From the NCBI GenBank assembly GCA_027062325.1, contig JAMOTN010000068.1:1-22246 (forward strand): a stretch of 22,246 nt of DNA, read 5' to 3'. Positions 436-22,246 of the stretch are shown piece after piece (positions within the stretch are counted from its first letter, which is position 1; each line of letters begins with the position of its first letter). This DNA is from a bacterium (lineage in GTDB: Bacteria > JAMOTN01). The notes under the pieces are model-generated. The model worked only from the letters and a program-made list of their open reading frames with translations. It was not told the origin of the DNA and did not search any database. Made by a program: the position numbers and the translations under genes.

Positions 436-475
436 TGTTCCTACAACATATCTGGTGTTTCTACAACATATCTGG
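436..475. repeat. 20-bp tandem duplication spanning the stop codon of the last dynamin gene
   Basis: TGTTCCTACAACATATCTGG at 436-455 and TGTTTCTACAACATATCTGG at 456-475 differ at one base. The second copy contains the last codons and the TAG stop (463-461) of the minus-strand dynamin-like gene. The duplication therefore repeats the gene's 3' end directly downstream of it. It looks like a recent slippage duplication. Confidence 0.85.
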
Positions 476-2548
476 CAAGCTATTCTTTAAATTCATCAAT
501 GCATCACGTATTCGGGCCACTCCATCTTCTACTTCCTTTAGAATCTCCGCCAGCTGTTTACTGTTGAGTTTGTTATTGCTTTTCGCTACTTTCCTAATCT
601 TGTTTAAGGTCTCTGCAATTTCAACCGTGGAATCCATCCATTCCGCAAGCAAGTTTTCTAATTCGCTTATCAAATTTTCATATACCCAAATCACAGAAAG
701 TGAGGTTGTTTTAACGTATTTCCTAAATCTTTTCCAGAACTTCACAAATTCAATTACTGCTGGGAAGTTAGAGAACTCCAAAAGATTGTGGTAGCTTACT
801 GTTTCTATTTCGTGAACTGTTTTGAGAGCATCAATTGCATCTTGCAAAAATTTTAGCGTATGATTATTTAAAGAGCCTTTTTTGATTTTTTTTAGAAAAC
901 TTTCCACATCTTGTGCTCTGGTGAAAGAGGGGTATGCTTCTTCTATCTGTTTTACCTCACTAAAAAGTTTAGCAGATACGGGAATTACAATAATTTTTTC
1001 TTCTGGCAATCCCAGGTTGTGCAGTTTGTTTTTGATAAAATGAGCAATTCGTAATGGAATTTTTATGGTTGCCATGTCGTGTTCCATTACGTCTATTTTG
1101 TTAATGAGACATAATATTGCTGGAGATTCTTCTCCAGTTTCTTTTATTTTCTTCACAGTGTCGGCAATTTCCTTCAAGAGTTTTAATTCTATATCCTGCA
1201 AGTGTTTTGAGTAGTCCATAACAAAAATTATTAGGTCTGAGGAAAAGATTAAGTCCTCAAGAATTTGATAAAGAAAATTATGTTCTGATGCTGCGAAATC
1301 GGGACCTACGGTATCCACAAGTTTAATGGATTCCATTAGTCTTTGGGAGGTAAGTGAGGGGTCTAAGTAAGGTAAACTTTGTGAGAGAGGAAAGAAAACG
1401 CCTATATATCCTAATTTTTTACCGTCATATTTTTTTTCTTCAAACATTTCAAATAAATGATTGTAAAGGTCCTTTGAACTGGGAAAGATTTGAATTCCGC
1501 CTTCAGTTTCGTCTGTGATAAGAACACTTTTAGAATTGAAGATGTTGACACCTTCATATATAACGATGTTTGGAGTAGGTGTCTCTGAACTTTCTGGAGC
1601 ATATTTTTTGCCAATAAGTGCGTTTATAACAGAACTTTTACCTGCTTTTTTACTTCCCAAAAGAAGATAAACATGGTTTGCCCGCATTTTTTCATTTAAT
1701 GTGTTAGTCAATAGATCAATATCAGCTACTATTTTTTCACACGCGAAGGCATTTACTAATAGGTTAAATGAAAATAAGTTGTAAAGTTCGATTAAGAAAC
1801 TAAAATCTACTTTTTCAAGTGGCAACCCTACTAAATATAGGGTTTCGCTGAGTATTTGTCGCAACCCTTCTGCTACTGCTTTTAAGTTGGAAAAGTTGAA
1901 CAATAACGTTTCTCCCAGGAAGTGTTCCATGCTTATCAAAAAAGCTTTTTCTGAAATACCCAGATAAAGCATTGCTTCTGCAGTTTTAAAAATTTGATCT
2001 TCAGGAACAAACAAAAGAATCACGTTCTGCGTAGCTGTTGTCTCCAATGAGGCAATAAAATTAACAAAGTCTGAAAAACGTTTTATTGTTATAGTTTCAA
2101 AATAGCTGGAGGCAAGGTTAAGAAAGACTTCTTCTGTAAGTTCTACAACTTCTTCCTCTATACTTCTTTTCCCTCTTCTTTCTGGTTTCCCCCTTTCTTT
2201 TTTGTGTTTGTTGACTCCCGTATCTTCCCCGTCCTTTTTTAAAGTGAATTTCCTTTGAAAAAATTTTCTAATTCTCTTTTTTAACTCTGAAGGAATTTCC
2301 TTTTTCCTAAACCAACTTTTTATATAGAACTCCTCATATTTGTTGGGGGGTGCCCATGCAACAATAGCACCCCCTTTATATTCAACTTCTTCACATACCT
2401 TCACAGCTATTTTCAGAGAATCATTAATATTTCCTCCGACTTCTTCCAGCACCGTGTGTAATTTTTCTTCACCTGTCCAAATAACATGTTTTTTCCTATT
2501 TAGCGCTTCCATTAAATGAAATTTGTTTTTCGTTGTTATCACATCCAT
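461..2548 (-). CDS. dynamin-like GTPase C (short form)
   Basis: Large GTPase of the dynamin superfamily, inferred to act at membranes. With the frame opened at GTG 2620 (residue 1), the G motifs are GSKKAGKS (G1, 322-329), ETPTPN (G2 region, 346-351), DTVGPD (G3, 436-441), NKID (G4, 507-510) and VSAK (G5, about 548-551). GTG 2620 has no visible ribosome site. ATG 2548 lies 12 nt after AAGGAG and gives 695 residues, so I prefer it. The N-terminal region, with a charged insert at about 120-165, and the G domain both match the 907-aa protein of this cluster; shared blocks include DYSKH and SNF. Only about 160 residues follow the G domain against about 470 in the paralogue, so most of the stalk is missing. 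It is the last gene of the cluster, just behind the 880-aa GTPase. Its partner and exact role are unknown. Confidence 0.85.
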   Translation of the reverse strand: MDVITTKNKFHLMEALNRKKHVIWTGEEKLHTVLEEVGGNINDSLKIAVKVCEEVEYKGGAIVAWAPPNKYEEFYIKSWFRKKEIPSELKKRIRKFFQRKFTLKKDGEDTGVNKHKKERGKPERRGKRSIEEEVVELTEEVFLNLASSYFETITIKRFSDFVNFIASLETTATQNVILLFVPEDQIFKTAEAMLYLGISEKAFLISMEHFLGETLLFNFSNLKAVAEGLRQILSETLYLVGLPLEKVDFSFLIELYNLFSFNLLVNAFACEKIVADIDLLTNTLNEKMRANHVYLLLGSKKAGKSSVINALIGKKYAPESSETPTPNIVIYEGVNIFNSKSVLITDETEGGIQIFPSSKDLYNHLFEMFEEKKYDGKKLGYIGVFFPLSQSLPYLDPSLTSQRLMESIKLVDTVGPDFAASEHNFLYQILEDLIFSSDLIIFVMDYSKHLQDIELKLLKEIADTVKKIKETGEESPAILCLINKIDVMEHDMATIKIPLRIAHFIKNKLHNLGLPEEKIIVIPVSAKLFSEVKQIEEAYPSFTRAQDVESFLKKIKKGSLNNHTLKFLQDAIDALKTVHEIETVSYHNLLEFSNFPAVIEFVKFWKRFRKYVKTTSLSVIWVYENLISELENLLAEWMDSTVEIAETLNKIRKVAKSNNKLNSKQLAEILKEVEDGVARIRDALMNLKNSLPDML

Positions 2549-2638
2549 TGATCTCTTTCTCTCCTTATTGTTAATCTCTTCTCTCTTTGTCGTTGTTTTA
2601 TCCTTATTTATACTTGCCACAACAGCCAGTAAAAGGGG

Positions 2639-5281
2639 TTATATGTGGCTCAGCTCTGCCTTTAGTTCGCAAATTTTGCCGAGTATTTCGTTGGCGATTC
2701 TAACCTCTAATTCCTTTTTAGCATTTTTTTCGATTTTAGAAGGGGCGATTAAAGCGATGTTGTTAACTATAAATTCCCAGAAAATATTGGGATTGTCCTT
2801 TGTATGTGGAGATTTTATTTTGTCAACAAGAATTTCGTAATAGTAGGTCAACACGTCAACAATGGTTTCTTCAAGTCCAAGAGCATTTACAACGGTTTCC
2901 GTGAGTATCTTTTTTATGATTTCTGCATCCTTTTCTATCTCTTTTTCTACTTCTTCATAGCTTGCGTAATGTGTTTTTGTTACCTCAATGTTTTCACTTA
3001 ATGCATCTGCCCTCTCTTCCTCCAATCTGTCCTCTGGATTCTTCCAATACAGGGAAAGGTGACGTTCTATAGAATCAAGAATTTTACTCGAAAAACTTTT
3101 TTTAGAAAGGGATTTACTCTTACTGGGAACTGCGGTGTTTTTAGCGGAATTTGCTGTAGCTTGTTCTTGTTGGGAGGTTTGCAATTCTTCCATTATCTCA
3201 TCTAATTTTTCTGTTACGAGCTCTAGAAGAGCAGATATTGTTTGCTTAGACAAGTTTACCATTTTATCTAAACGGCTTTTTTTAAACAGGAAGGAAACCA
3301 GTTGTAAAGCTAGTGTTTCCTTTCCAACGTATTTCTCAAGCCCGGGATATTTCTTAAAAATTTCCTCAATCATCTCTTTAAACCCTTTCCAATTAACCAT
3401 CTCCTCCTGATAAATGAGTTCATTTTTTATGCCTTCAAAAGGTAGAGGAAGATAAGGATCAAAGTTTTCGTTATATGCAAACAAGCTGTATATATCTCTT
3501 TCCCATGTTTTAAAAACGTTCACACGGTCAGTTGACCCAACTCTATGCTTCATTATTTCTACAAATGGTCTTGTGTAACGCTGTGTTATAACTTTTATAA
3601 TTTCATGTCCTTTGGCAAACGGAAACTCTCTATCCAGTAATTCCACAAGTTTCTCTAAAAGCTTATCCCATTCATCTTTGTCAGCTTCCATTACTTCAAG
3701 CAGTTTTTCGGCAAACTTTCTGTTGATTTCCTGCAGATACGCCACAAGAACGTCTTCCAGAAAAGCCAGCTTGCTTTGCAATTTCCGGCGAAAAACTTCA
3801 CGTAGTCTTTTGGCATATTCTTCCGTAACTTCAGCTTCGCGAACGTATTCTGCAGCAAGCTGGGTTTTTATTTGATCTTTCTCTTTATCTGAAATGCTAA
3901 GGTCCATGTTTCTTATTCGCTCTATAAGTTGCTTACTTATGGCTTTCTCGTTTTTTATTTTTAGCACTTCAAAATTTTTAAAACGCGCCAGTTTTCCTTC
4001 ACCTTTTTCCGTTATATCCAGCATGAGTTTATCATAAGTTTCTTTGACAAGACCCACGTAGTTTTTTCTGACAGTGTTGGGATCTGCAACGGACTGTAAA
4101 ATTTTTTCCAATGTGTCAATAATCTCGTGCAATTCTTCAAGTCGTCTGTTGATTTTCTTCTCAAGATTTGGAATCCTTTCCTTTTCGTTGTATTCCTCAA
4201 GTTTTTTCTTCAACTCTTCAATCCCGCTGGTAATCCCCAATCCTTTCAGCCTTTCAGAAGCATTTATCTCAGATGGGACAACTCCTTTTTCTTCAAGATA
4301 GGCAAGCGCAGATCCAAAAATGACCCTGTATTCTGGAACGTTGAGATTGTATTTTTTTAGCTCGTTCATAAAAACTTCAAAATTTTCCTGTAAAGCTTTT
4401 GAACTACTTAGCATGTCAGCTTGGTTCAGGAAGAAAAAAAGCTTTTCTGTAAGGTAACTTCCCTCTTCTCTCATCTTAGGACTGAGTATCATGTCAACTT
4501 CGGGTTTGTTTATGCTGGGTTTATGTGCAGGCCTTATGTAAACGATTGCGTCTACTTCTTTCATTTTCTGTTGAGTATATTTTGAGTGGCGTATTGCGGG
4601 CGAATCAAAGCCGGGCAGATCGTACATGATTATATTTTTGAACTTTTCCAAGGCTGGCGATTTAATAATTACGGTTTTTATTGCCAGAGATTTGTATTCG
4701 TCGGTAATAAAACTGCGAGCCTGTTCAGGAGACATGGTTTCTATGCCTCTATCAAGCAGTCTTTTGATTTCCCTTTTCCCATTTACCATTGATTTAAGAT
4801 CATTTATAACCGAATTTACCTCTGAAGACGAAAATTTTTCTCCTACTTTTTCTATCTCTTCCATTCTCAAACTTTCCAGTGTTTGCTCGTACGCATTTGG
4901 GTAACCGATTTCAGCCAGCATTTGACGGAGTTTTTGAGTGAACTCTTCGCGCGTGAGAAAGTGGACCTCTGCAGTCGGGGTATCCGAATAAACAATTTGA
5001 GTGATGGCATAAGTCATTCTTCTGTCGGCGCGTGGAAGTATATCGTTTTCTATGAGAGCGTTTAAAAATGTGCTTTTACCCGAACTTTCAGTTCCAACAA
5101 CCGCTACTTCAAATATGCCCTTCTCAAACTTTTCTTTGAACTTCTCAAAATCGCGTCGCAGCGAGTAAATTTTATCGTAATCAATCTCTACCGGAAAATC
5201 CGAGCTATACTCTTCCAGCTTTTCAAGGAGTGAAAGAGCTTTATCAACCTTTGGTTTTAGCCTGTCAAAAGAAAACTTCAT
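2639..5281 (-). CDS. dynamin-like GTPase B (Dynamin_N type, 880 aa)
   Basis: Large GTPase with a classic bacterial dynamin layout: a short N-terminal helical segment, a G domain, then about 500 residues of mostly charged helix. Motifs are GTESSGKS (G1, 63-70), RRMTYAIT with the switch Thr (about 87-94), DLPGFD (G3, 221-226), NQAD (G4, 286-289) and GSA (G5, 323-325). G4 has Gln where Lys is usual. A Ser/Lys/Thr-rich low-complexity linker lies at roughly 720-755, before the last helical part. Size and order match BDLP- or LeoA-like proteins that bind GTP and remodel or tether membranes. No transmembrane helix is evident, so any membrane contact would be through a paddle or a partner. The start ATG follows GGGAGG at a normal distance. 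It does not share the N-terminal domain of the other two dynamins here and is a separate branch. Confidence 0.9.
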   Translation of the reverse strand: MKFSFDRLKPKVDKALSLLEKLEEYSSDFPVEIDYDKIYSLRRDFEKFKEKFEKGIFEVAVVGTESSGKSTFLNALIENDILPRADRRMTYAITQIVYSDTPTAEVHFLTREEFTQKLRQMLAEIGYPNAYEQTLESLRMEEIEKVGEKFSSSEVNSVINDLKSMVNGKREIKRLLDRGIETMSPEQARSFITDEYKSLAIKTVIIKSPALEKFKNIIMYDLPGFDSPAIRHSKYTQQKMKEVDAIVYIRPAHKPSINKPEVDMILSPKMREEGSYLTEKLFFFLNQADMLSSSKALQENFEVFMNELKKYNLNVPEYRVIFGSALAYLEEKGVVPSEINASERLKGLGITSGIEELKKKLEEYNEKERIPNLEKKINRRLEELHEIIDTLEKILQSVADPNTVRKNYVGLVKETYDKLMLDITEKGEGKLARFKNFEVLKIKNEKAISKQLIERIRNMDLSISDKEKDQIKTQLAAEYVREAEVTEEYAKRLREVFRRKLQSKLAFLEDVLVAYLQEINRKFAEKLLEVMEADKDEWDKLLEKLVELLDREFPFAKGHEIIKVITQRYTRPFVEIMKHRVGSTDRVNVFKTWERDIYSLFAYNENFDPYLPLPFEGIKNELIYQEEMVNWKGFKEMIEEIFKKYPGLEKYVGKETLALQLVSFLFKKSRLDKMVNLSKQTISALLELVTEKLDEIMEELQTSQQEQATANSAKNTAVPSKSKSLSKKSFSSKILDSIERHLSLYWKNPEDRLEEERADALSENIEVTKTHYASYEEVEKEIEKDAEIIKKILTETVVNALGLEETIVDVLTYYYEILVDKIKSPHTKDNPNIFWEFIVNNIALIAPSKIEKNAKKELEVRIANEILGKICELKAELSHI

Positions 5282-5355
5282 CGTGATCTACCTCCCTCTT
5301 TTCTGCTAAACCGACTCTAGCCACTTCGCCTCCCATTAGGTTTCCACAAGCGCCC

Positions 5356-5478
5356 TTAGTTTGAATTTTCTAAGATTTTTTCCAGTTTTTCCAAAGTATC
5401 CTTGAGTTGTAATGTGATGTCTTTTAGTTCTTTAACAACCTCCTTTAACTGCTGATTTACAGAGAATGCTTGATTAAT
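5356..5478 (-). other. out-of-frame coiled-coil extension of the tail-anchored protein (-1 frame)
   Basis: Seen directly: the frame one base behind that of the upstream 206-aa gene stays open past that gene's TAA (5459-5457) down to TAA at 5358-5356. From 5478 it encodes 40 residues, INQAFSVNQQ then LKEVVKELKD and ITLQLKDTLE, with Leu/Val/Ile at heptad a and d positions. There is no ATG, GTG or usable TTG near its beginning. It can be translated as a continuation only if ribosomes slip -1 around C TTA AAA (5484-5478) at the end of the membrane helix, giving a 240-aa product. Otherwise a one-base change in the DNA or the assembly has broken a longer gene. The heptamer is not a canonical slippery site. 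Confidence 0.65.
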
Positions 5479-6077
5479 TTTAAGAAAATCATAATTACCA
5501 AGATTACGAATACAACCCCAAATATTAGCCACATCATTCTTGCTAAGTTCCTTGAGCGACTTTCCTCTTGAAGAGAACGAGTTGAAAATTTTTTTTTCAA
5601 TCCACTTAGATTTTCTTTTCCGTACTTTTTGTCAAATTCTTCAAAGTTCTCCTTCAATTCCGCAAAATATTTTGGTTCCACCTCTTCAAATATTTCTGCC
5701 ATTACTCCGAGAATCCGAATAAACAGATCCGTATCTTTTACAACTCTGTTGAAAGCCTCTTCAACCAATTTCTCCTGTCGCTGATGTTTAAACCATATAA
5801 AACTGCGCAGTTTGTAAATGTTTTGACTTAGAAGTTTGACTCCTTCCTGATCAAAGAGGTAGGAGGCAACCTCTATGAGAATGGAGTCAAAGTTTACTGT
5901 TTGAATGGTTAAGGCATTCCCCTTGTAATTTTGACGAGCTATCTCTTTCTCTCTCTTTAGGAACAGTTCCTCAACCTCAATTCCTTTCATTCCCTCACCT
6001 ATCTCTATTCCCATGAGTTCTGCAAGTTCAGATAGCTTCTCTGAACCACTTTCAAATGCACGATCGTAAAAAATCAT
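5457..6077 (-). CDS. small tail-anchored protein between two dynamin genes
   Basis: I do not recognise the family. The 206-residue product is helical and charged (LKENFEEFDKK and similar runs) and ends in one hydrophobic segment at about 181-199 (MMWLIFGVVFVILVIMIFL), followed by a short basic tail. This is the layout of a C-terminally anchored inner-membrane protein with its bulk in the cytoplasm. The frame can open at GTG 6086, which overlaps the upstream TGA, but AGAGGTGA (6090-6083) sits six bases before ATG 6077 and that start is better supported. It lies five bases after the 907-aa dynamin gene, so co-translation is likely, and the 880-aa dynamin gene follows. By position it could recruit or anchor the GTPases. 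A coiled coil encoded in the -1 frame directly after its end suggests a longer form. Confidence 0.75.
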   Translation of the reverse strand: MIFYDRAFESGSEKLSELAELMGIEIGEGMKGIEVEELFLKREKEIARQNYKGNALTIQTVNFDSILIEVASYLFDQEGVKLLSQNIYKLRSFIWFKHQRQEKLVEEAFNRVVKDTDLFIRILGVMAEIFEEVEPKYFAELKENFEEFDKKYGKENLSGLKKKFSTRSLQEESRSRNLARMMWLIFGVVFVILVIMIFLKLIKHSL

Positions 6078-6082
6078 ATTCT

Positions 6083-6090
6083 TCACCTCT
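6083..6090 (-). promoter_or_regulatory. ribosome binding site that sets the start of the tail-anchored gene
   Basis: The complement reads AGAGGTGA, overlapping the TGA stop of the 907-aa gene and ending six bases before ATG 6077. It favours ATG 6077 over the longer GTG start at 6086, which would lie inside this site. Confidence 0.65.
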
Positions 6091-8806
6091 TTACTTGATA
6101 AAGTTTAGAGATTTGATTCCATCTTGTAGTAAAACCTTCAATGTGCTTTTCAAACTCTTCAAGTAGTTTTTTGACCTTTTGTCTTTCTTCTACAGACAAC
6201 TCCAAAGCCTTCAAAACATCCTCTATTGGTTGTCTGACACTGTTTATGAAGGATACGACATTTTGCCAAAATTCCTCTGCCTTTTGACGAGTTATCTCTT
6301 CCACTACTTCTCTTAAACTTTGCTGAATTCCCTCACTTGAGATAATCTTCTCAATTTTACTGGCAATCTCTCCTTGAGCCTCCTGAAAGTGAGAGATGAC
6401 TTCTTCAAGTACTCCATCCGCACGTTCATCTATGGAAACGGGGCTTGCAAATGGAAGAATTTTTCGCAGAAAACCAGTGTGAACATGCTTGAAAACTTCT
6501 TTAAAATCAACTTCAATGCGTAATTTTTCCAAATCCAGGATATTGTTTTCAACTTTTTTTATAATCTCTGCTAACCAATGCTGCCATTCAAACGACGGGG
6601 AAATTGAAGGTAATTCTACTTCAAGCTTTTCTGGCAGTAATTTGTCCACTTCAATGCCTTGCAACTCATCTTTAAGTGTTTTAAGGGCACCTTCTACCTC
6701 CGATTTTAAGTTTTCCATTTCCTTTTCAAGTCTTTTTTCGTATTCTTCAATTTTCTTCTCTAAATCCTCCCTCAAAATCCCACGGAATTCTTCCCTTAAT
6801 AGAGCTTCTATTCCATCTATTAGAAAATCTCCCTTGAAAATAGTTAGATGAGAAAACTGGGATTTTAGCCTTTCTAATTCATCCTCAATACTCGTGAATA
6901 TTTTATCTAACCAGCCCTTCTGAGAAATTTCTGTCAGTTCGTTTATAAGTCTTTCCGTTAACTTTCTAAAGTAGTCAGAAGCAGCAATTAAATTCTCACT
7001 TGCAATTGCTTGGATACTTTTTTGGGTGGTGATTACACTTATATGCACGACTTCTTCTTTGACTTCTTCCAAGCTTTCCACAATTCTCCTAAATCGTTCT
7101 TCCGATAGAAGTGAGCTTGTGTAGTTCAAAAACTTGGTGGATGCTTGACGGATTTTTTCGGTTTCGTCGGATATTAGAAGAAGCCCACTTTTGCAGGTGT
7201 TTTGGACCAGTTTTTGCCTGGTGTCAACTGTGGCAAAGGTTGAATATGCCTTTTCTATATAGGCTTTGTCCTGGGCAACGTAGATCAGATGATTCTTGAA
7301 GGGTTCAAAGTTGGAAAGGGCAACTATATCCTCAAATCTAATTTCATCGGGGTCAACTTCAAAAATGTATTCAAAGGTGTTAATTTGATTCTGTATAAAT
7401 CTAGCAACTGCTCTATCTATCTTATCCTTATACACTTTCGGGCGTAGAAATTCTTTCCACTCCGGATTATTCACGGCTTCTGGAAACTTTTTCTTAAATT
7501 CCACGGTATAGAAATACGTCATAGCAGAAATTGGAATTGCGACCACTCCTTCCAACCCACTTCTTTCAAGAACATGCCTTATAAAGAGAGCAACGCGAGA
7601 TATTATCTTTTCGGTTGAAGTGTCGTCAAACATTAGATCAAGTTTGTTTATCGCGCATATTAGGGAATGCATTTTTTGTTTGAAAACTTCTTTCAGCCTT
7701 TCAAGAAGTTCCACTTCACTCTCTTGGGCGTGTTTTGAGTAATCCACCACGAAAACTGCAACATCGGCTTTATTCAAATACTCTTCCGCTATCCTTTTGT
7801 GATCCTCTGCTCCTGCAAGGTCTGGCCCCGGAGTATCGTAAATTTCAAAATTAATACCGGGCTTTCGGGGATAATAAACACGCATTGTGGGAAGTCCTTC
7901 TCCTCTATCTTTTACCCTTTCAAACTCCATATGTATGTAATCCCATAGTTCTTCTTTTGTGGAAAAGTGCAAGGTTCTACCGCCGTATTCAAGCTTTAAC
8001 CCTCCATCGTGAGGAATGTATTCAATAACATTTGGGGTTGGAAGTTCAGCACTTGTCGGAGCAAACTCTTCTCCAAGCAGTGCGTTGACAACCATACTTT
8101 TGCCGGATTTCTTGGTGGCAAAGACCGCAACTTTTATATTTCTCAACTCAAGTTTTCTAAGATTTTCAATAATCGCTTTAAAATTATCACGAGTTGTTGT
8201 TACCAGTTCACCTACAATTTTTTTAAGCTGGGAACTGGCACCTATAAGTTCTGGATTCGCCTCTAGGTTAAAATTTTGAGCATACTTAAAAGATTCTTCG
8301 GCTGCTTCTATAACCTCTTCCTTTTGGCTTTCAAAAACTTTCAATGCTTTCTTTGTAGCAACTTCAGACGGGGTGCTGACGTTCCAACGAAGTCCTAAAA
8401 GAATTAACTGTTGAATCGTGTTTGCAACTTCCTTTTCATCCGAGGATTTGACAAGAAGTGTTACACTATTGGGGGTTAATTCGTAGGGGGATATCCCCAG
8501 TTTAAACACTTTATCTAGAGCCTCAGAAAGAGAATATACATCATAGCTTTCCGAGTTTACCTCCAGAACTGCTCCTTCGGAGAACTGAACCTCTTCTGCT
8601 ATCTTCCAAAAATATTTTTCTGCGGAATCAACTTTCTTAAGTCTGCGAGATAAAACTTCAAGTGAGCGGTAAAGCGGAGGGGTTTTAGAATCGTAAATTA
8701 TCACGTATTTTTCTCCGGATGTGAGTAAATTTTCAAGCTCTTTTTCTGATCTGGCAACTTTTACACCTCTGTATTGCATTGAAGGAGATTGAATTGGATT
8801 GATCAT
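6083..8806 (-). CDS. dynamin-like GTPase A (907 aa)
   Basis: Large dynamin-superfamily GTPase. An N-terminal alpha/beta-looking domain (about 15-165) precedes a helical linker and the G domain: ATKKSGKS (G1, 230-237), ELPTPN (G2 region, 254-259), DTPGPD (G3, 324-329), NKLD (G4, 387-390) and ISA (G5, 426-428). The first P-loop residue is Ala instead of Gly. Residues from about 440 to 907 are helical, with long Glu/Lys-rich coiled-coil stretches (about 685-725) and a more hydrophobic patch FLRKILPFASPVS near 785-800 that could be a membrane-contacting tip; that role is inference. The start ATG follows AAGGAGGT at eight bases. An extended -10 promoter lies upstream, so this gene can head its own transcript with the tail-anchored protein and the other two GTPases. 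Its N-terminal and G domains are paralogous to the 695-aa protein. Confidence 0.9.
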   Translation of the reverse strand: MINPIQSPSMQYRGVKVARSEKELENLLTSGEKYVIIYDSKTPPLYRSLEVLSRRLKKVDSAEKYFWKIAEEVQFSEGAVLEVNSESYDVYSLSEALDKVFKLGISPYELTPNSVTLLVKSSDEKEVANTIQQLILLGLRWNVSTPSEVATKKALKVFESQKEEVIEAAEESFKYAQNFNLEANPELIGASSQLKKIVGELVTTTRDNFKAIIENLRKLELRNIKVAVFATKKSGKSMVVNALLGEEFAPTSAELPTPNVIEYIPHDGGLKLEYGGRTLHFSTKEELWDYIHMEFERVKDRGEGLPTMRVYYPRKPGINFEIYDTPGPDLAGAEDHKRIAEEYLNKADVAVFVVDYSKHAQESEVELLERLKEVFKQKMHSLICAINKLDLMFDDTSTEKIISRVALFIRHVLERSGLEGVVAIPISAMTYFYTVEFKKKFPEAVNNPEWKEFLRPKVYKDKIDRAVARFIQNQINTFEYIFEVDPDEIRFEDIVALSNFEPFKNHLIYVAQDKAYIEKAYSTFATVDTRQKLVQNTCKSGLLLISDETEKIRQASTKFLNYTSSLLSEERFRRIVESLEEVKEEVVHISVITTQKSIQAIASENLIAASDYFRKLTERLINELTEISQKGWLDKIFTSIEDELERLKSQFSHLTIFKGDFLIDGIEALLREEFRGILREDLEKKIEEYEKRLEKEMENLKSEVEGALKTLKDELQGIEVDKLLPEKLEVELPSISPSFEWQHWLAEIIKKVENNILDLEKLRIEVDFKEVFKHVHTGFLRKILPFASPVSIDERADGVLEEVISHFQEAQGEIASKIEKIISSEGIQQSLREVVEEITRQKAEEFWQNVVSFINSVRQPIEDVLKALELSVEERQKVKKLLEEFEKHIEGFTTRWNQISKLYQVKR

Positions 8807-8888
8807 TTATACCTACCTCCTTGTCCAAAAATTCAAACATACTTTTCACGTTTTTGTCATTATTTTGTGATAAAAGCAAACCGGTAAC

Positions 8889-8897
8889 ATTATATCA
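8889..8897 (-). promoter_or_regulatory. extended -10 promoter ahead of the 907-aa dynamin gene
   Basis: The complement reads TGATATAAT, a perfect TGnTATAAT extended -10 element, in the 148-bp space between the 429-aa gene and the 907-aa gene. No good -35 is present, which extended -10 promoters tolerate. The leader would be about 75 bases. It suggests the downstream four genes can be expressed apart from the first two. Confidence 0.5.
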
Positions 8898-8954
8898 AAT
8901 ATTCGCCTTTGCTTTTTTCTCCCCCTTCTTTTCTTCTTGGTTGGAGGTTGAAAT

Positions 8955-10244
8955 TTATAAAATATCAAGATTGTCAAACTTTTTTTCAAATTTTTCTTCA
9001 AATACTTTTTCAAATTCTTCTGTAGGATGATCTTTGCGATAGATGAGTTTTTCTTCTTTAGTTGATGCAATTTCTTCAAGCTTTAAATTAGCTTGCAGGA
9101 GGAGTTTGTAGAACGACAGTAGGATTTCATCGGCGAATTCTCCATAGGAATCCCATTTTTTCATTGTTTGCTTCACCCTAACAATTGCTTCTGCTGCTAT
9201 ACGTGCTGTGATCTCAGTGCGACTGGTTGGACTATAAAGCCGTAAGGGTTTTAAAATCTTTCTCTTTAAACTGTCAACGATGTAGTCAGCAATACTTCCT
9301 CCATAGCCCCCGCGATAGAGAAATTCAAAAATTAGCTCATCCCACATTTCAATCTCGCTTTCAACGACTCTGCCGTTGGCGATCACATCTCCAAAAATCT
9401 TTGAGGTTAAATTTGCGTGAGATTTTATCACAGTGGCAATTTCCTCGTCTGAAAAGATACGCCTGATGTGGTAAGTTATATCGTGCAACAACTTTGTTTT
9501 TAAAAGATCAGCTGCTGTGAATAGGACAGAAAGATACCTTTCGAAAAGATTGTTGATTTCTTTTATATTCCAATGTACATCTGGAGAAAAATAGTCCAAG
9601 CTATCGGCAAGTAGTTTCGTTCCATAAAAGGTACCAGTTTTCCTTCTTCTACGAAGTAAATCCAGCAAGGATTTTCTTCCGTCATTCAACTCTGAGATAA
9701 GAGATAAACCTCCTTTAAGAAGTTCTGTCACCGTGGAGATCACTTTAGCACTCTTCACTTTTTTCCTAAGTTCCTCAGCCATCCTGTAACAGATCGGTAA
9801 ATCCTCCACAGGTATACCCTGAGAAATATCCAGAATGGATTCTGCAGTTTCAGCTATGAGAGTTTTATCAGCAGAAGAGATTTCCCACTTTTTCAAAACG
9901 CGCGGTGAGAACTTTTTTATCACCTTGTTATACAATTCAATTTCTATTTCAGGGATGATAAGTTGCTTTTGCTCGGCAACTATTCTGGATATTTCCTTTA
10001 CCTTTTCCTTAAATTCTTCTATGGACATGGGCGTGTGATAATCCTTAATCTTTTGTTGAACGTAAAGTAACAGCTGGCCAGAAAGCTTTGAAAGTGCAGA
10101 GCTGACAAGTTTAATATAACTTGGATGTTTTTTCACAACTTTTTGTATTTCGCTTGCAATTTCAAGGATAAGCTGATTGTCAAATTTTTTCTTTTCAAAT
10201 TCCCTTTTCGATTCCCTTTTCCCAAATTTACCCCTCTTTACCAT
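8955..10244 (-). CDS. helical protein of unknown family in the dynamin cluster
   Basis: The 429-residue product matches no family I can name. It appears entirely alpha-helical and highly charged, with no signal peptide, no clear transmembrane helix and no nucleotide-binding motif. A basic start (KRGKFGKRESKREFEKKKF) and an acidic/basic end (EEKFEKKFDNLDIL) flank a body with Leu-rich segments such as LLKGGLSLISEL. The frame also opens at GTG 10253, but AAAGGGGTGG (10259-10250) sits five bases before ATG 10244, so that start is chosen. The gene lies between the 341-aa protein and the 907-aa GTPase, same strand, 148 bp before the latter. It may be an accessory or effector subunit of the dynamin system; that rests on position alone. 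Confidence 0.75.
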   Translation of the reverse strand: MVKRGKFGKRESKREFEKKKFDNQLILEIASEIQKVVKKHPSYIKLVSSALSKLSGQLLLYVQQKIKDYHTPMSIEEFKEKVKEISRIVAEQKQLIIPEIEIELYNKVIKKFSPRVLKKWEISSADKTLIAETAESILDISQGIPVEDLPICYRMAEELRKKVKSAKVISTVTELLKGGLSLISELNDGRKSLLDLLRRRRKTGTFYGTKLLADSLDYFSPDVHWNIKEINNLFERYLSVLFTAADLLKTKLLHDITYHIRRIFSDEEIATVIKSHANLTSKIFGDVIANGRVVESEIEMWDELIFEFLYRGGYGGSIADYIVDSLKRKILKPLRLYSPTSRTEITARIAAEAIVRVKQTMKKWDSYGEFADEILLSFYKLLLQANLKLEEIASTKEEKLIYRKDHPTEEFEKVFEEKFEKKFDNLDIL

Positions 10245-10328
10245 CCAAACCACCCCTTTCTTTTTGGGGAAGGTCCTACGAGCAGCCTTCAGGAAATTGT
10301 TGTGGTAGAACCTACCCCTTTGCTACCC

Positions 10329-10357
10329 CTGCCCTGCGTATAGAAGATACAGGGCAG
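10329..10357. repeat. inverted repeat / RNA hairpin without a T-tract
   Basis: CTGCCCT at 10329-10335 pairs with AGGGCAG at 10351-10357, and inside it GTAT (10338-10341) pairs with ATAC (10347-10350), leaving the loop AGAAG and a two-base bulge. Neither strand has a run of T after it, so a plain intrinsic terminator is unlikely. It could be a processing or mRNA-stabilising structure between the 341-aa and 429-aa genes. Confidence 0.6.
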
Positions 10358-10418
10358 AAAAGCCACAGAGCAGAAAAGCTGAAGCAGAGTGTGTTAAGCT
10401 GTGGTGGCGTTACTATGG

Positions 10419-10433
10419 GTTGGTTTTGCAATT
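10419..10433. repeat. 15-bp direct repeat, copy 1
   Basis: GTTGGTTTTGCAATT occurs here and again, same orientation, at 12374-12388. The two copies bracket the 341-aa gene and the two pseudogenes. A shorter relative (CTTTGCAATTG) is at about 10462. Confidence 0.75.
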
Positions 10434-10552
10434 GTGTTCCAGCTTTATAGTTACATCTAAGCTTTGCAATTGCGCCAAAGTTTGGATTTTAAGCAGAAGT
10501 TCCAAGCCACTTTCTCTGGTTTTTGGCTGTGGCTCTCAGCATATCAAGGAAG

Positions 10553-11578
10553 CTACACCAAATCCTTCGTGATATCCACGAATATTTGTGACGCGCTGTC
10601 AAAAAGAGATGTAATCTTCTCGGCAATTTCTCTTGCAAAGGATTCGTTCATTTTGCTACTCAATCCCCATTTAACTGCAGTTCCTATAAGGGGGATGAAA
10701 CGTGTAAGCTGTTTTGAAGTGGATCTGGCAAACAGTCTTGTTGCCATTCGTTGAAGGGTTGCTCTCAAACCCTTTCGTGTAAATAGATAGCGGACTTCTG
10801 CTATGAATGCTGAGGTAAGTTTGGTAACAACAGGACTTTTTACAAGTTTGTCTGTAAGTTGTGGGAGAAATTTTGAAATTGTGTAGTGTTTGGCAATGCC
10901 GTGTGCTAGTGCTTTTGCCACACTTTGACTCACCGTTTTTCTCGCCATTGAATTGAATTTCCTTTGCAAAGACTTTTTGACTTGCTTAGCCAGATTCTCA
11001 AAAGCAATAACGGTAAACGCGGTGGCAAGGATAGATTCTATAACTAACGTGCTGTATCTAGAGGAAAACTTGTAGGTGCTGTTTAGTGTAGCCGCTACCT
11101 CGCCCCCCATTGATGCTAATTTGATAAATCCCGAAACAGGACCCAGGGCATTTGAAGCAAGGTCTAAAAGACTTGATAGGATGTTGTGATTTTGGAGTTC
11201 GGCGTAAAGATTTTTGAAAACAAGATTAAATATCATACTTTTCACTCTGTTGATTTTTACAAAGTTTGGTCTGTTTAAAACTGCTTCAACTACGCATTCT
11301 GCAATCTTCTTTTTCAACCTTCTTTCTTCTGGAGTAAGTTTTTCAAGCTTGACAGGCTTTATTTCAAGCATTTGAAAAACTGCCTCCACAGCCGGTGCCA
11401 CAACTTCAAATATTTTTTCTTTCAAATTCCGATAGTCCCCCATAAGTGTTTCTATTTCTTTCTCTATTTCTTTCTCAACTTTTCTTTTCTCAATGATGGC
11501 TTTTAGAGCTGAACCAACAGCCTCATAAATGAATTGCTCATTAGAAAGATGGGAAATTACGAAGAGATTTTTCCTCAT
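10553..11578 (-). CDS. helical protein with EcsC/DUF697-like C-terminal motif, first gene of the dynamin cluster
   Basis: The 341-residue product is predicted helical, with a hydrophobic stretch near residues 178-193 (LVIESILATAFTVIAF) and a C-terminal segment RFIPLIGTAVKWGLSSKMN (about 293-311). The latter resembles the hydrophobic 'iPxiGaxxgaxxN' ending of EcsC and DUF697 proteins, a family that often occurs with dynamin-type or small GTPases. This is a resemblance by eye, not a domain hit. The frame opens further upstream at ATG 11629, but that ATG has no ribosome site, whereas GGGGGGAGG (complement of 11582-11590) sits just before ATG 11578. It is the most upstream gene of the cluster and is followed by a 308-bp gap. 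Likely membrane-associated; its role is unknown. Confidence 0.7.
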   Translation of the reverse strand: MRKNLFVISHLSNEQFIYEAVGSALKAIIEKRKVEKEIEKEIETLMGDYRNLKEKIFEVVAPAVEAVFQMLEIKPVKLEKLTPEERRLKKKIAECVVEAVLNRPNFVKINRVKSMIFNLVFKNLYAELQNHNILSSLLDLASNALGPVSGFIKLASMGGEVAATLNSTYKFSSRYSTLVIESILATAFTVIAFENLAKQVKKSLQRKFNSMARKTVSQSVAKALAHGIAKHYTISKFLPQLTDKLVKSPVVTKLTSAFIAEVRYLFTRKGLRATLQRMATRLFARSTSKQLTRFIPLIGTAVKWGLSSKMNESFAREIAEKITSLFDSASQIFVDITKDLV

Positions 11579-11728
11579 CTTCCTCCCCCCTTTTTTGCTT
11601 TTTTCTCCTCGCTTCTTACCTGCTTTCATTTATAAAGAGCAAGGTGGAAACAATTTTGTGACATGAAATTTTAAAATTTTGAAGGCAACCATTCTTGACA
11701 GTGCCAAACGAGGCATTGCTAATTCATG

Positions 11729-12225
11729 CTATTCTTCACTTGTTCCTTCCTGAAAATGTAGAAGGTATTTCTTGGTTTTATTGAAAAGGAGACGATATTG
11801 ATTTTCGATGCGAATGCGCGGATCATCTTCTATTAGAGGATTAGAGGGAACCCCGCTTCGAAAATTATGTTTTTCGCTACTTTTTGCTTTATTAGTTCTA
11901 AAAGTTCCTCATTGTTGAGCTTTTCAATTTTTTCAATTCCTGCAACCACGCAACACATTTTCAATACGTCTTTTGAAATACTGTCAATTTTGTTAGAATG
12001 CCTTTTTAACAGTTCAGATTTTGCTTGAATGGTCCAGTTGGGATGAAATACAAGCTCTCTTGCTTTGTTAGTAACTATGAGGTAGTTCCCGCGGTATCAC
12101 ACCGTTATCTTGACAAGAAATGCCAGGGTAGAAAAGCTGTCAACACTCGTTCTTACAAGTAGAAAGGGGTATGCAGTAGAACTTGCAAAAAAATGACCAA
12201 ACGTAAGAACTGCCTGTTTCCTTTT
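11729..12225 (-). pseudogene. broken gene with one in-frame stop and one frameshift
   Basis: Reading the minus strand from 12225, a frame encodes 42 protein-like residues ending FSTLAFLVKITV, meets TGA (12099-12097), continues in the same frame with YRGNYLIVTNKARELVFHPN and about 65 more residues to FEAG, then reaches TAA at 11835-11833. One frame over, starting at the GGGG just before that stop, the sequence continues as GVPSNPLIEDDPRIRIENQY and on to HFQEGTSEE and TAG at 11731-11729. Joined, the pieces give roughly 155 residues. There is no start codon with a ribosome site, so the 5' end is also lost. I do not recognise the family. TGA as selenocysteine is unlikely given the additional frameshift and missing start. 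Confidence 0.65.
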
Positions 12226-12230
12226 TCAGG

Positions 12231-12356
12231 GCTGTGAAACGCTACTTACAAGAGTGTTATCAGATGGAGGTGTGCAGCTGTAACACTATAAAAGACATAG
12301 CAGAAAAAATTGGAACATCCCCAGCAAAACTTTGGGAAGAGATAAAAACTGGGTGA
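12231..12356 (+). pseudogene. C-terminal remnant of a DUF4405-type protein gene
   Basis: This plus-strand frame encodes 41 residues ending in TGA: it starts AVKRYLQECY and finishes IAEKIGTSPAKLWEEIKTG. It aligns without gaps to residues 172-208 of the intact membrane protein at 12933-13580 (VKRYLEDKY and ISEKTGASPAQIWEEL), with about half the positions identical. No start codon or upstream membrane part survives. It is a fragment of a former paralogue, not an independent gene. Confidence 0.75.
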
Positions 12357-12369
12357 AGTTTTAGATAGT

Positions 12370-12410
12370 TAGTGTTGGTTTTGCAATTATCAACTAAAAC
12401 ACAAACACTA
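12370..12410. repeat. inverted repeat at the stop codon of the OsmC gene
   Basis: TAGTGTT (12370-12376) pairs with AACACTA (12404-12410) and GTTTT (12378-12382) with AAAAC (12396-12400). On the minus strand the stem begins with the TAG stop of the OsmC-family gene. There is no clear T-tract after it, so terminator function is possible but weak. Confidence 0.4.
12374..12388. repeat. 15-bp direct repeat, copy 2
   Basis: GTTGGTTTTGCAATT, identical and in the same orientation as 10419-10433. This copy forms one arm and part of the loop of the hairpin behind the OsmC-family gene. Confidence 0.75.
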
Positions 12411-20367: not shown

Positions 20368-22246
20368 TTAACTGATAGACTTTTCCAAGGTGGGCGATGT
20401 TGAGTTAGAAAGGGCTTCTCTCAAAATTGTGGGTATTTCATGGATTCTTAAAGCTACTTTTATACCCCTAGTCTCCAAATATTTCTGTTTACTGATGGCA
20501 TCTCCCTTCCCACCTTCAACTATCGCTCCTGCATGGCCCATACGACGACCTTGAGGGGCACTTTTCCCAGCAATGTAAGCGACAACTGGCTTGGGGTAAT
20601 TTGTGTTTTTAATATAGTCTGCTGCTGCTTCTTCTGCACTACCTCCTATTTCTCCGATCATGACAACTGCGGCTGTATGGGGATCATCTTTTAGCAACTC
20701 CAATATATCCAAATAATTAGAACCTATAATTGGATCCCCTCCTATACCAATGACAAAGGACTGTCCCATTCCACAGCTACTCAAGAGATTTACAACTTCA
20801 TAAGTTAAAGTTCCACTTCTTGATATGACTGCAATTTTTCCTGGTGTGAATATAGACGCAGGCATGATACCTACCTTTGCAATACCTGGAATCATCAATC
20901 CCGGACAATTTGGTCCCACTATTTTTACTTCAGGATATGTCCTTTGGACAAAATTTTTTACTTCCAGCATATCCTTAACTGGAATACCTTCTGTTATGAC
21001 AACTACATTTTTTATACCGGCTTCTACTGCTTCCAAGATTGCATCCTTTGCAAACGGGGCAGGTACAAAAACAAGAGAAGTGTCTGCTCCAGTCTGATCC
21101 ACTGCTTCTGCAACTGAATTGTAAACCGGAACAAAGAATTCTTTATCTTCTGCTTCAAACTTTATGGTAGTGCTTCCTTTTCCGGGAACAACTCCTCCTA
21201 CAATTTTGCTTCCATAAAGAAGGCACCTTGAGGCATGAAAACTCCCTTCTCTCCCTGTTATTCCTTGCACGATAATTTTATTTATGTTGAGCAGATTTGA
21301 ACCTTTTTCTGACTTCAAATTAAAGGATTCTTGACTGAACTTTTGGAGGTTTATGGGTTTTCCCTCTGCAATTGCCACCGCTGCTTCTACCGCTTCCTTC
21401 AAGTCTTCAAATATGTAGCACTTATTGTTCAAAGAACGTTGTAGAACTTCTACACCTTCCGCATAATTTGTTCCGCGCATTCTTATTACAGTTGGGGGAA
21501 CAGAATCAAGACCAATTTCTTCTACTGCTTCCTTGATACCTGCGGCTATTCTGTCACACCTGACTATGCCTCCAAAGATATTCACTAGAATACAGCTAAC
21601 ATCAGTTTCAAGAGCCAGTATTTTAAATGCTTCTTTAATCCTATCAACAGTAGCCGTTCCACCAACATCTAAAAAGTTGGCCGCCTTTCCTCCAGCTGCA
21701 GCAATTTCATCCATAGTTGCCATTGCAAGTCCTGCACCATTGACCATGCAGCCAATATTTCCATCCAATTTTACAAAGTTTAAACCAATTTTGGTAGCCT
21801 TCAACTCCACTGGATCTACTTGTGATGGATCAAACCAGTCGTTCCACTCAGGATGCCTGAAGGAGGCGTTATCATCTAGGTTGAGTTTTGAATCTATGGC
21901 TATTAGTTCATCATCCTCTGTTAATACAAGAGGATTTATTTCAACTAATGAGGCATCTAACTCTACAAACAAGCTGTATACTGCTCTTGCAATTTTTACG
22001 AAATCCCTCACCAGATTTGGAACGGAGTTAATCAAGCCTGTGTCAAAAAGACCGTAAGCTAGGTTTCTTAACTGAAAATCTTGAACTCCTATGAGTGGAT
22101 CTATGTAAATTTTCTTTATAAGCTCAGGTTTCTCCTCTGCAAGTTTTTCTATCTCAACACCACCTTCTGAAGAAGCTATCATAACTATCTTTTCCGAGGC
22201 TCTATCCAAGGTACAGCCTAAATAAAACTCCTTTTTAATATCCACA
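20368..22246 (-). CDS. sucC-sucD: fused succinyl-CoA synthetase, beta then alpha subunit (5' end outside window)
   Basis: Interconverts succinyl-CoA and succinate with nucleotide triphosphate synthesis. One uninterrupted frame holds both subunits. The first about 295 visible residues are SucC from the end of its ATP-grasp region: VDIKKEFYLG, ASSEGGVEIE, VEINPLVLT, NFLDVGGTATVDR and VNIFGGIVRCDRI. A linker of about 20 residues (NLQKFSQESFNLKSEKGSN) follows, then a complete SucD: GITGREGSFHA, VPGKGST, GPNCPGLMIPG, VISRSGTLTYE, IGIGGDP and GKSAPQGRRMGHAGAIVEGG, whose His (residue 571 counted from 22245) is the phosphohistidine. The GTG at 22245 encodes an internal Val; by comparison with SucC about 90-100 N-terminal residues lie beyond the edge. 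Subunits are separate in most bacteria. The carboxyltransferase gene follows after 47 bases, so co-transcription is likely. Confidence 0.95.
   Translation of the reverse strand, partial: VDIKKEFYLGCTLDRASEKIVMIASSEGGVEIEKLAEEKPELIKKIYIDPLIGVQDFQLRNLAYGLFDTGLINSVPNLVRDFVKIARAVYSLFVELDASLVEINPLVLTEDDELIAIDSKLNLDDNASFRHPEWNDWFDPSQVDPVELKATKIGLNFVKLDGNIGCMVNGAGLAMATMDEIAAAGGKAANFLDVGGTATVDRIKEAFKILALETDVSCILVNIFGGIVRCDRIAAGIKEAVEEIGLDSVPPTVIRMRGTNYAEGVEVLQRSLNNKCYIFEDLKEAVEAAVAIAEGKPINLQKFSQESFNLKSEKGSNLLNINKIIVQGITGREGSFHASRCLLYGSKIVGGVVPGKGSTTIKFEAEDKEFFVPVYNSVAEAVDQTGADTSLVFVPAPFAKDAILEAVEAGIKNVVVITEGIPVKDMLEVKNFVQRTYPEVKIVGPNCPGLMIPGIAKVGIMPASIFTPGKIAVISRSGTLTYEVVNLLSSCGMGQSFVIGIGGDPIIGSNYLDILELLKDDPHTAAVVMIGEIGGSAEEAAADYIKNTNYPKPVVAYIAGKSAPQGRRMGHAGAIVEGGKGDAISKQKYLETRGIKVALRIHEIPTILREALSNSTSPTLEKSIS

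What the first reader, a model, noticed from the sequence alone, without database searches (positions are those of the whole stretch)
461..11578. Six-gene cluster with three different dynamin-like GTPases, a tail-anchored protein and two helical proteins of unknown or weakly recognised family
Seen: three complete G-motif sets (G1, G3, G4) in the 907-, 880- and 695-aa proteins, all on one strand with tight spacing, plus a small protein with a C-terminal membrane helix, a 429-aa helical protein and a 341-aa protein with an EcsC/DUF697-like ending. Known: bacterial dynamins often come in pairs (LeoA/LeoC, DynA/DynB, IniA/IniC) and act in membrane fusion, repair or phage protection. Inference: a three-dynamin set with its own membrane anchor would be an expanded, possibly undescribed, heteromeric membrane-remodelling machine.
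Basis: partly seen in the sequence, partly recalled or inferred. Interest (0 to 1): 0.85.

Follow-up and report, generated by a model that had tools for sequence, protein, structure and literature searches.

The report
Multi-dynamin membrane GTPase operon
Beside ordinary metabolic genes sits a set of three large membrane-shaping GTPases (dynamins) and a small membrane protein; similar sets recur in distant bacteria, once inside an anti-virus gene island, so this is probably an undescribed multi-part dynamin machine that protects the cell membrane, perhaps against phages.

Summary
Homologues show which part is a system. The 880-aa (P2) and 907-aa (P4) GTPases have full-length relatives in Bacillota, encoded side by side in six loci and one contig-end fragment, mostly followed by a small protein that often has a membrane segment. 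In three Selenomonadales loci a further P4-type GTPase follows, so 'three GTPases plus small membrane protein' recurs, apparently by independent duplications. In one genome the cassette lies between nuclease/helicase genes and BREX genes; other relatives adjoin a Type ISP restriction enzyme, PbeC/DndD-like, IetA or HerA genes. The window itself has no defence neighbours. P0005 and P0006 were never found beside dynamins, the EcsC/DUF697 label is not supported, and P0003 is not detectably homologous to the other small proteins. Best reading: a heteromeric mitofusin/BDLP/Leo-class dynamin machine recruited to the membrane by a small anchor, probably an accessory defence or membrane-protection system. 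New variant of a known kind; function inferred, not shown.

The parts
6083..8806 (-). P0004, 907-aa dynamin-like GTPase ('P4' type): N-terminal domain, G domain, long helical neck/trunk
   Evidence: Dynamin_N over cut-off; full-length homologues in L023-L027, L085, L093, L098, L117; model best matches mitofusin-1, Z 22.8
5457..6077 (-). P0003, 206-aa protein (start ATG at 6077) with a membrane helix near the C-terminus; likely membrane anchor
   Evidence: hydropathy 3.18 at residues 187-205 of the 209-aa frame; ribosome-binding site before the ATG; no close homologue
5358..5480 (-). possible C-terminal continuation of P0003 in the -1 frame: amphipathic helix of about 39 residues
   Evidence: open frame with coding-like codon score, matched by 84 of 2670 intergenic windows; same plan (membrane segment then C-terminal helix) in the other small proteins
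2639..5281 (-). P0002, 880-aa dynamin-like GTPase ('P2' type)
   Evidence: Dynamin_N over cut-off; full-length homologues in 24 of 189 genomes of the order of Quinella
461..2548 (-). P0001, 695-aa GTPase, paralogue of P0004 with a short C-terminal part (no long trunk)
   Evidence: 29% identity to P0004 over the G domain, E 2e-37; tree 92/98 with P0004; 209 residues after G4
8955..10244 (-). P0005, 429-aa helical orphan; membership of the system not supported
   Evidence: no family; only a marginal hit (29% over about 90 residues) in 386 genomes, without dynamins
10553..11578 (-). P0006, 341-aa orphan with a weakly hydrophobic stretch; membership of the system not supported
   Evidence: no Pfam family over cut-off; not found in any dynamin locus read
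8889..8897 (-). extended -10-like element TGATATAAT in the gap before P0004; candidate promoter of the core operon
   Evidence: only match in the window, but one such match is expected by chance in 53% of shuffles

Best explanation
The core is a four-gene set P0004-P0003-P0002-P0001. P0002 and P0004 are two unlike dynamin-like GTPases that (inferred) assemble into a heterotypic complex which tethers or reshapes the inner membrane, as the Campylobacter Cj-DLP1/2 pair does in vitro. P0003 (inferred) docks the complex on the membrane, because neither GTPase has a membrane helix of its own. P0001 is a P0004-type G domain without P0004's long trunk; it would pair with the other G domains and tune their GTP cycle rather than bind membrane (inferred). 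The set is a rare, patchily distributed accessory module; its likeliest job is to guard membrane integrity during attack, most probably phage infection. Shown here: gene content, G motifs, the conserved P2-P4 neighbourhood, a recurring small membrane protein and extra GTPase, and defence genes beside several homologues. Inferred: complex formation, membrane action and defence.
For: P2 and P4 homologues are direct neighbours in L023, L026, L085, L093, L098, L117 and the fragment L078. Five more P2 loci have instead a P4-like protein that lost the P-loop (hhalign 99.3%, E 4.9e-20), so the partnership persists even without GTP binding. The small protein after P4 has a membrane segment in several Selenomonadales copies, and in L117 a separate membrane-plus-helix frame follows. 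A further P4-type GTPase follows in L085, L093 and L098. P0004's model matches mitofusin-1 (Z 22.8, rmsd 4.6 over 373 residues), Cj-DLP (Z 20.3) and BDLP1 (Z 16.4) (Foldseek). Defence context of homologues: L117 lies between PD-(D/E)XK + UvrD genes and BrxA-BrxB-BrxC-PglX; L026 beside a Type ISP restriction enzyme; L103 PbeC/DndD-like, L104 and L105 IetA, L101 HerA/mad8. Patchy spread: no strong P4 match outside the own genome in 376 diverse genomes, 2 of 388 Bacillota. Precedent: B. subtilis DynA delays phage lysis (PMC8844932).
Against: The window has no defence gene beside the cluster; its neighbours are metabolic and transport genes. Many P2 homologues stand alone, several beside a gene that reads like HtpG, which fits stress repair as well. 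The neighbour proteins scanned for defence families were chosen by hand; 80 proteins of control regions showed no restriction, BREX, PbeC, IetA or HerA family at E 1e-20, but did show one LeoA-like dynamin, so the enrichment is only indicative. P0003 is not detectably homologous to the other small proteins. The P0002 model failed (pLDDT 38.5) and no membrane-binding residue could be named.
Confidence: 0.5

Rival explanations
1. A general membrane-maintenance machine (repair after envelope stress or heat, in the manner of DynA or IniA) with no dedicated role against phages; defence neighbours of some homologues only reflect genomic hot spots.
For: P2-type genes without P4 beside an HtpG-like gene in several related Selenomonadales (gene identity read by eye); the window cluster lies among metabolic genes; no relatives in plasmids, phages or viral contigs.
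Against: Very patchy occurrence and repeated restriction, BREX, IetA, PbeC or HerA genes beside homologues.
Confidence: 0.3
2. A vesicle-release or secretion machine like LeoABC: the GTPases pinch or stabilise membrane vesicles.
For: P0004 gives a weak LeoBC profile match (E 2.5e-6) and the L117 P4 protein a LeoA match (E 2.6e-14); leoA and leoB deletions halve vesicle-borne cargo in ETEC (PMC4159319).
Against: No secretion gene beside any of the loci read; several relatives are Bacillota whose envelopes differ, and defence genes are the commoner company.
Confidence: 0.12
3. Chance neighbourhood: unrelated dynamin genes happen to lie together.
For: Gaps of 148 and about 308 nt separate P0005 and P0006 from the rest; those two genes have no homologue beside dynamins.
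Against: P2-P4 pairs recur in another phylum. It remains a fair reading for P0005 and P0006 only.
Confidence: 0.04

Closest known systems
Cj-DLP1/Cj-DLP2 pair of Campylobacter jejuni (PDB 5owv, 5oxf)
   Same: Two unlike dynamin-like GTPases side by side in one operon; Cj-DLP1 is the best solved relative of the P2 profile (E 1.4e-11), and the P0004 model matches 5oxf_B (Z 20.3).
   Different: No third GTPase and no small membrane protein reported in that operon (PMC6104087); P0004 has an extra N-terminal part that the matches barely cover (model residues 149-906).
LeoA / LeoBC (ETEC; also a PADLOC defence model)
   Same: Adjacent dynamin genes; P0004 matches LeoBC (E 2.5e-6, residues 156-702), the L117 P4 protein matches LeoA (E 2.6e-14).
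   Different: Leo splits one dynamin into LeoC (with its own membrane anchor) and LeoB (PMC4159319); here all GTPases are whole, the membrane helix is in a separate protein, and P0001 and P0002 match no Leo model at E 0.01.
DynA of Bacillus subtilis
   Same: P0002 matches the NCBIfam DynA model in the second G domain (76 bits); DynA is an example of a dynamin that helps against phages (PMC8844932).
   Different: DynA is one protein with two fused dynamins; the match is far below the family cut-off of 1600 bits.
Mitofusin-1 and BDLP1
   Same: Closest folds to the P0004 model over G domain and neck, including the C-terminal helix (Z 22.8 and 16.4).
   Different: 18% and 15% identity; mitofusins carry their own membrane segments, P0004 has none.

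Membership tests
Dynamin superfamily | Dynamin_N GTPase domain with G1, G3 and G4 motifs | tested here: met
   P0001, P0002 and P0004 over the Pfam cut-off; motifs
Dynamin superfamily | Dynamin-type fold of G domain plus helical neck | tested here: met
   P0004 model against mitofusin-1, Z 22.8; model confidence only moderate (pLDDT 54)
Dynamin superfamily | Same fold in P0002 | tested here: inconclusive
   model pLDDT 38.5, unusable
LeoA/LeoBC system | One dynamin split into LeoC and LeoB beside LeoA | tested here: not met
   all three GTPases carry G1 to G4 in one chain
LeoA/LeoBC system | Profile match of both partners to Leo models | tested here: not met
   P0004 matches LeoBC weakly; P0002 and P0001 match no Leo model at E 0.01
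DynA (two-headed) | Two dynamins fused in one chain, over the NCBIfam cut-off | tested here: not met
   76 bits against 1600; single G domain in P0002
CrfC | NCBIfam equivalog score | tested here: not met
   18-24 bits against 1146
EcsC / DUF697 (P0006) | Pfam or NCBIfam match | tested here: not met
   no such match
Anti-phage defence system | Location in defence islands | tested here: inconclusive
   met for homologues L117, L026, L103, L104, L105, L101; not for the window
Anti-phage defence system | Protection against phage | not testable with these tools
   needs plating and lysis assays
Heterotypic dynamin pair (Cj-DLP-like) | Physical hetero-oligomer with stimulated GTPase | not testable with these tools
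   needs purified proteins

The most novel reading that the evidence does not exclude
A previously undescribed anti-phage system: two obligate unlike dynamins, a small membrane anchor and an optional trunk-less regulatory GTPase that senses or seals phage-induced membrane damage, found in a deep-branching bacterium and in Bacillota and sometimes built into BREX islands.
Probability: 0.35. Interest if true: 0.75.

Novelty: new variant of a known kind. Interest (0 to 1): 0.55.

Why it matters
Bacterial dynamins are usually described as pairs, and how they are brought to a membrane and regulated is poorly known. A recurring module with a dedicated small membrane protein and an extra trunk-less, or even GTP-binding-dead, partner offers natural separable parts for testing hetero-oligomer assembly; the copy that sits in a BREX island offers a direct test of a dynamin-based defence.

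Tried and rejected
Homology of P0003 to the Selenomonadales small proteins: hhalign probability under 1% with and without the possible extension. P0001's N-terminal part as the P4 N-terminal domain: no better than shuffled sequence, whereas the Selenomonadales third GTPases do share that domain (97.5%). P0005/P0006 against the 332-aa protein of the L101 variant: nothing. Structure of P0002: model too poor to use. The cassette in viral contigs, plasmids and phages: no relatives by these queries, only weak generic dynamin matches. RNA families and tRNAs in the window: none. Matches of P0002 to designed pentatricopeptide chains cover 46 residues with no stretch passing on its own and were taken as artefacts. 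Hits of the P4 profile near E 1e-15 in diverse genomes were generic dynamins without the neighbour set. Simple promoter and terminator scans gave no more sites than shuffled sequence.

Full report
What is there. The window is the whole 22,246-base contig 68 of a 1.65-Mb draft genome (84% complete); every other genome offered as a relative was 'same domain' only, so no close lineage is held. Six genes lie on the minus strand, transcribed in the order P0006, P0005, P0004, P0003, P0002, P0001. Three proteins exceed Pfam's Dynamin_N cut-off and carry complete G1, G3 and G4 motifs. P0001 and P0004 are paralogues (29% identity over the G domain, E 2e-37); P0002 is of a different type. P0003 has one strong membrane helix. 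P0005 and P0006 belong to no recognised family; P0005 has one weak PHROGs match of unknown function (E 8e-6).

Is it a system. One scan of 84,980 species genomes with a P0004/P0001 profile gave five loci, all in Bacillota MAGs. In L023 and L026 a full-length P0002 homologue (917 aa, 'P2') is immediately followed by a full-length P0004 homologue ('P4') and then small proteins; L024 starts inside such a set; L025 and L027 have P4 alone. A P2 search of the order around Quinella found matches in 24 of 189 genomes. Their surroundings gave further sets: L085 (P2, two P4 frames, small membrane protein, a 501-aa P4-type GTPase), L093 (P2, P4, small membrane protein, a 1,421-aa P4-type GTPase with 19 Sel1 repeats, a 255-aa membrane protein), L098 (P2, P4, two small proteins, a 1,242-aa GTPase of the same kind) and the contig-end fragment L078. 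Many other P2 genes in that order stand without P4. Five loci (L083, L095, L101, L102, L107) pair P2 with a protein that is P4-like over 707 columns (99.3%, E 4.9e-20) but has lost the P-loop; in the loci read in full this goes with a HerA/DUF87-type ATPase. A Bacillota genome held as one 2.65-Mb contig, L117, has P2, P4 and a small protein in tandem. So the P2-P4 partnership is conserved between the window's lineage and another phylum. The third GTPases of Selenomonadales form their own clade (100/100) while P0001 groups with P0004 (92/98; P0001 is long-branched), and P0001's N-terminal part is not theirs; a third GTPase therefore seems to have arisen more than once.

The small protein. In the Selenomonadales copies there is an N-terminal helical domain, in several of them one or two membrane segments, and a short C-terminal amphipathic helix. 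In L117 these are two reading frames, a roughly 100-aa soluble one and a membrane-plus-helix one. P0003 has the same order, soluble part then membrane helix, and the -1 frame behind its stop encodes an amphipathic stretch with acceptable codon use. Sequence homology could not be shown, so this is likeness of plan, not membership.

How it may work. The P0004 model (pLDDT 54, best in G domain and neck) matches mitofusin-1 (Z 22.8, rmsd 4.6 over 373 residues), the Campylobacter pair and BDLP1. The best solved relative of the P2 profile is Cj-DLP1 (E 1.4e-11). Cj-DLP1/2 form a 2:2 tetramer that tethers liposomes, and most bacterial dynamins are encoded in pairs (PMC6104087). By analogy, P0002 and P0004 form the membrane-acting heteromer; since neither has a membrane helix, P0003 is the likely anchor; P0001 keeps the G domain but has about 209 residues after G4, against about 517 after P0004's G4 at residue 387, and so probably regulates. 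These steps are inference.

What for. In L117 the cassette lies between PD-(D/E)XK and UvrD-type genes on one side and BrxA, BrxB, BrxC and PglX on the other. L026 adjoins a Type ISP restriction enzyme, L103 a PbeC/DndD-like gene, L104 and L105 IetA-like ATPases. In 80 proteins from control regions of the same genomes no such family appeared at E 1e-20, against about six of 46 hand-chosen neighbours; the choice was not blind, so this is indicative only. P4 genes are rare: none outside the window's genome at comparable strength in 376 diverse genomes, 2 of 388 Bacillota, and none in plasmids, phages or viral contigs by these queries. Patchiness and company suggest an accessory defence or membrane-protection role; B. 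subtilis DynA, which delays phage lysis, is a precedent (PMC8844932). Against it, the window's own neighbours are metabolic, and lone P2 genes beside an HtpG-like gene fit stress repair.

Verdict.

Noticed in passing
window 5358-5480, minus strand: Behind P0003's stop the -1 frame stays open for about 39 codons and encodes an amphipathic helix; a frameshift, a separate small gene or an assembly error are all possible.
   Followed up: partly
L101 115-10689; likewise L083, L095, L102, L107: A cassette of a HerA/DUF87-type ATPase, a 332-aa protein with tape-measure-like and membrane stretches, small proteins, a P2 dynamin and a P4-type protein that lost its P-loop and has Sel1-like repeats.
   Followed up: partly
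L093 6622-10884 and L098 11987-15712: Dynamin-type G domains fused to long Sel1 repeat arrays (19 repeats in L093), an unusual architecture.
   Followed up: no
L088, L089, L090, L097, L100: P2 dynamin genes without a P4 partner beside a gene that reads like HtpG, in several related Selenomonadales; may point to a stress role.
   Followed up: no
L028 (Treponema plasmid) and L030 (E. coli plasmid): Two dynamins, a small protein, a DUF87/ATP-binding protein, an HNH-type nuclease and SMI1/KNR4 in the same order: a recurring dynamin cassette of another type.
   Followed up: no
L029 6120-11956 (Calditerrivibrio plasmid pCALNI01): Three dynamin genes in a row beside an IS200/IS605-TnpB element.
   Followed up: no
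window 20368-22245, minus strand: Succinate-CoA ligase beta and alpha subunits read as one fused protein, cut by the contig end.
   Followed up: no
window 436-475: A 20-nt unit repeated in tandem (95% identical) at the end of P0001.
   Followed up: no
window 11640-12400, minus strand: A long stretch upstream of P0006 without a listed gene that holds coding-like fragments, perhaps a decayed gene.
   Followed up: no
control regions L118-L137: One protein of the control set matches the PADLOC LeoA model at E 4.5e-30, a further dynamin in these Bacillota genomes.
   Followed up: no
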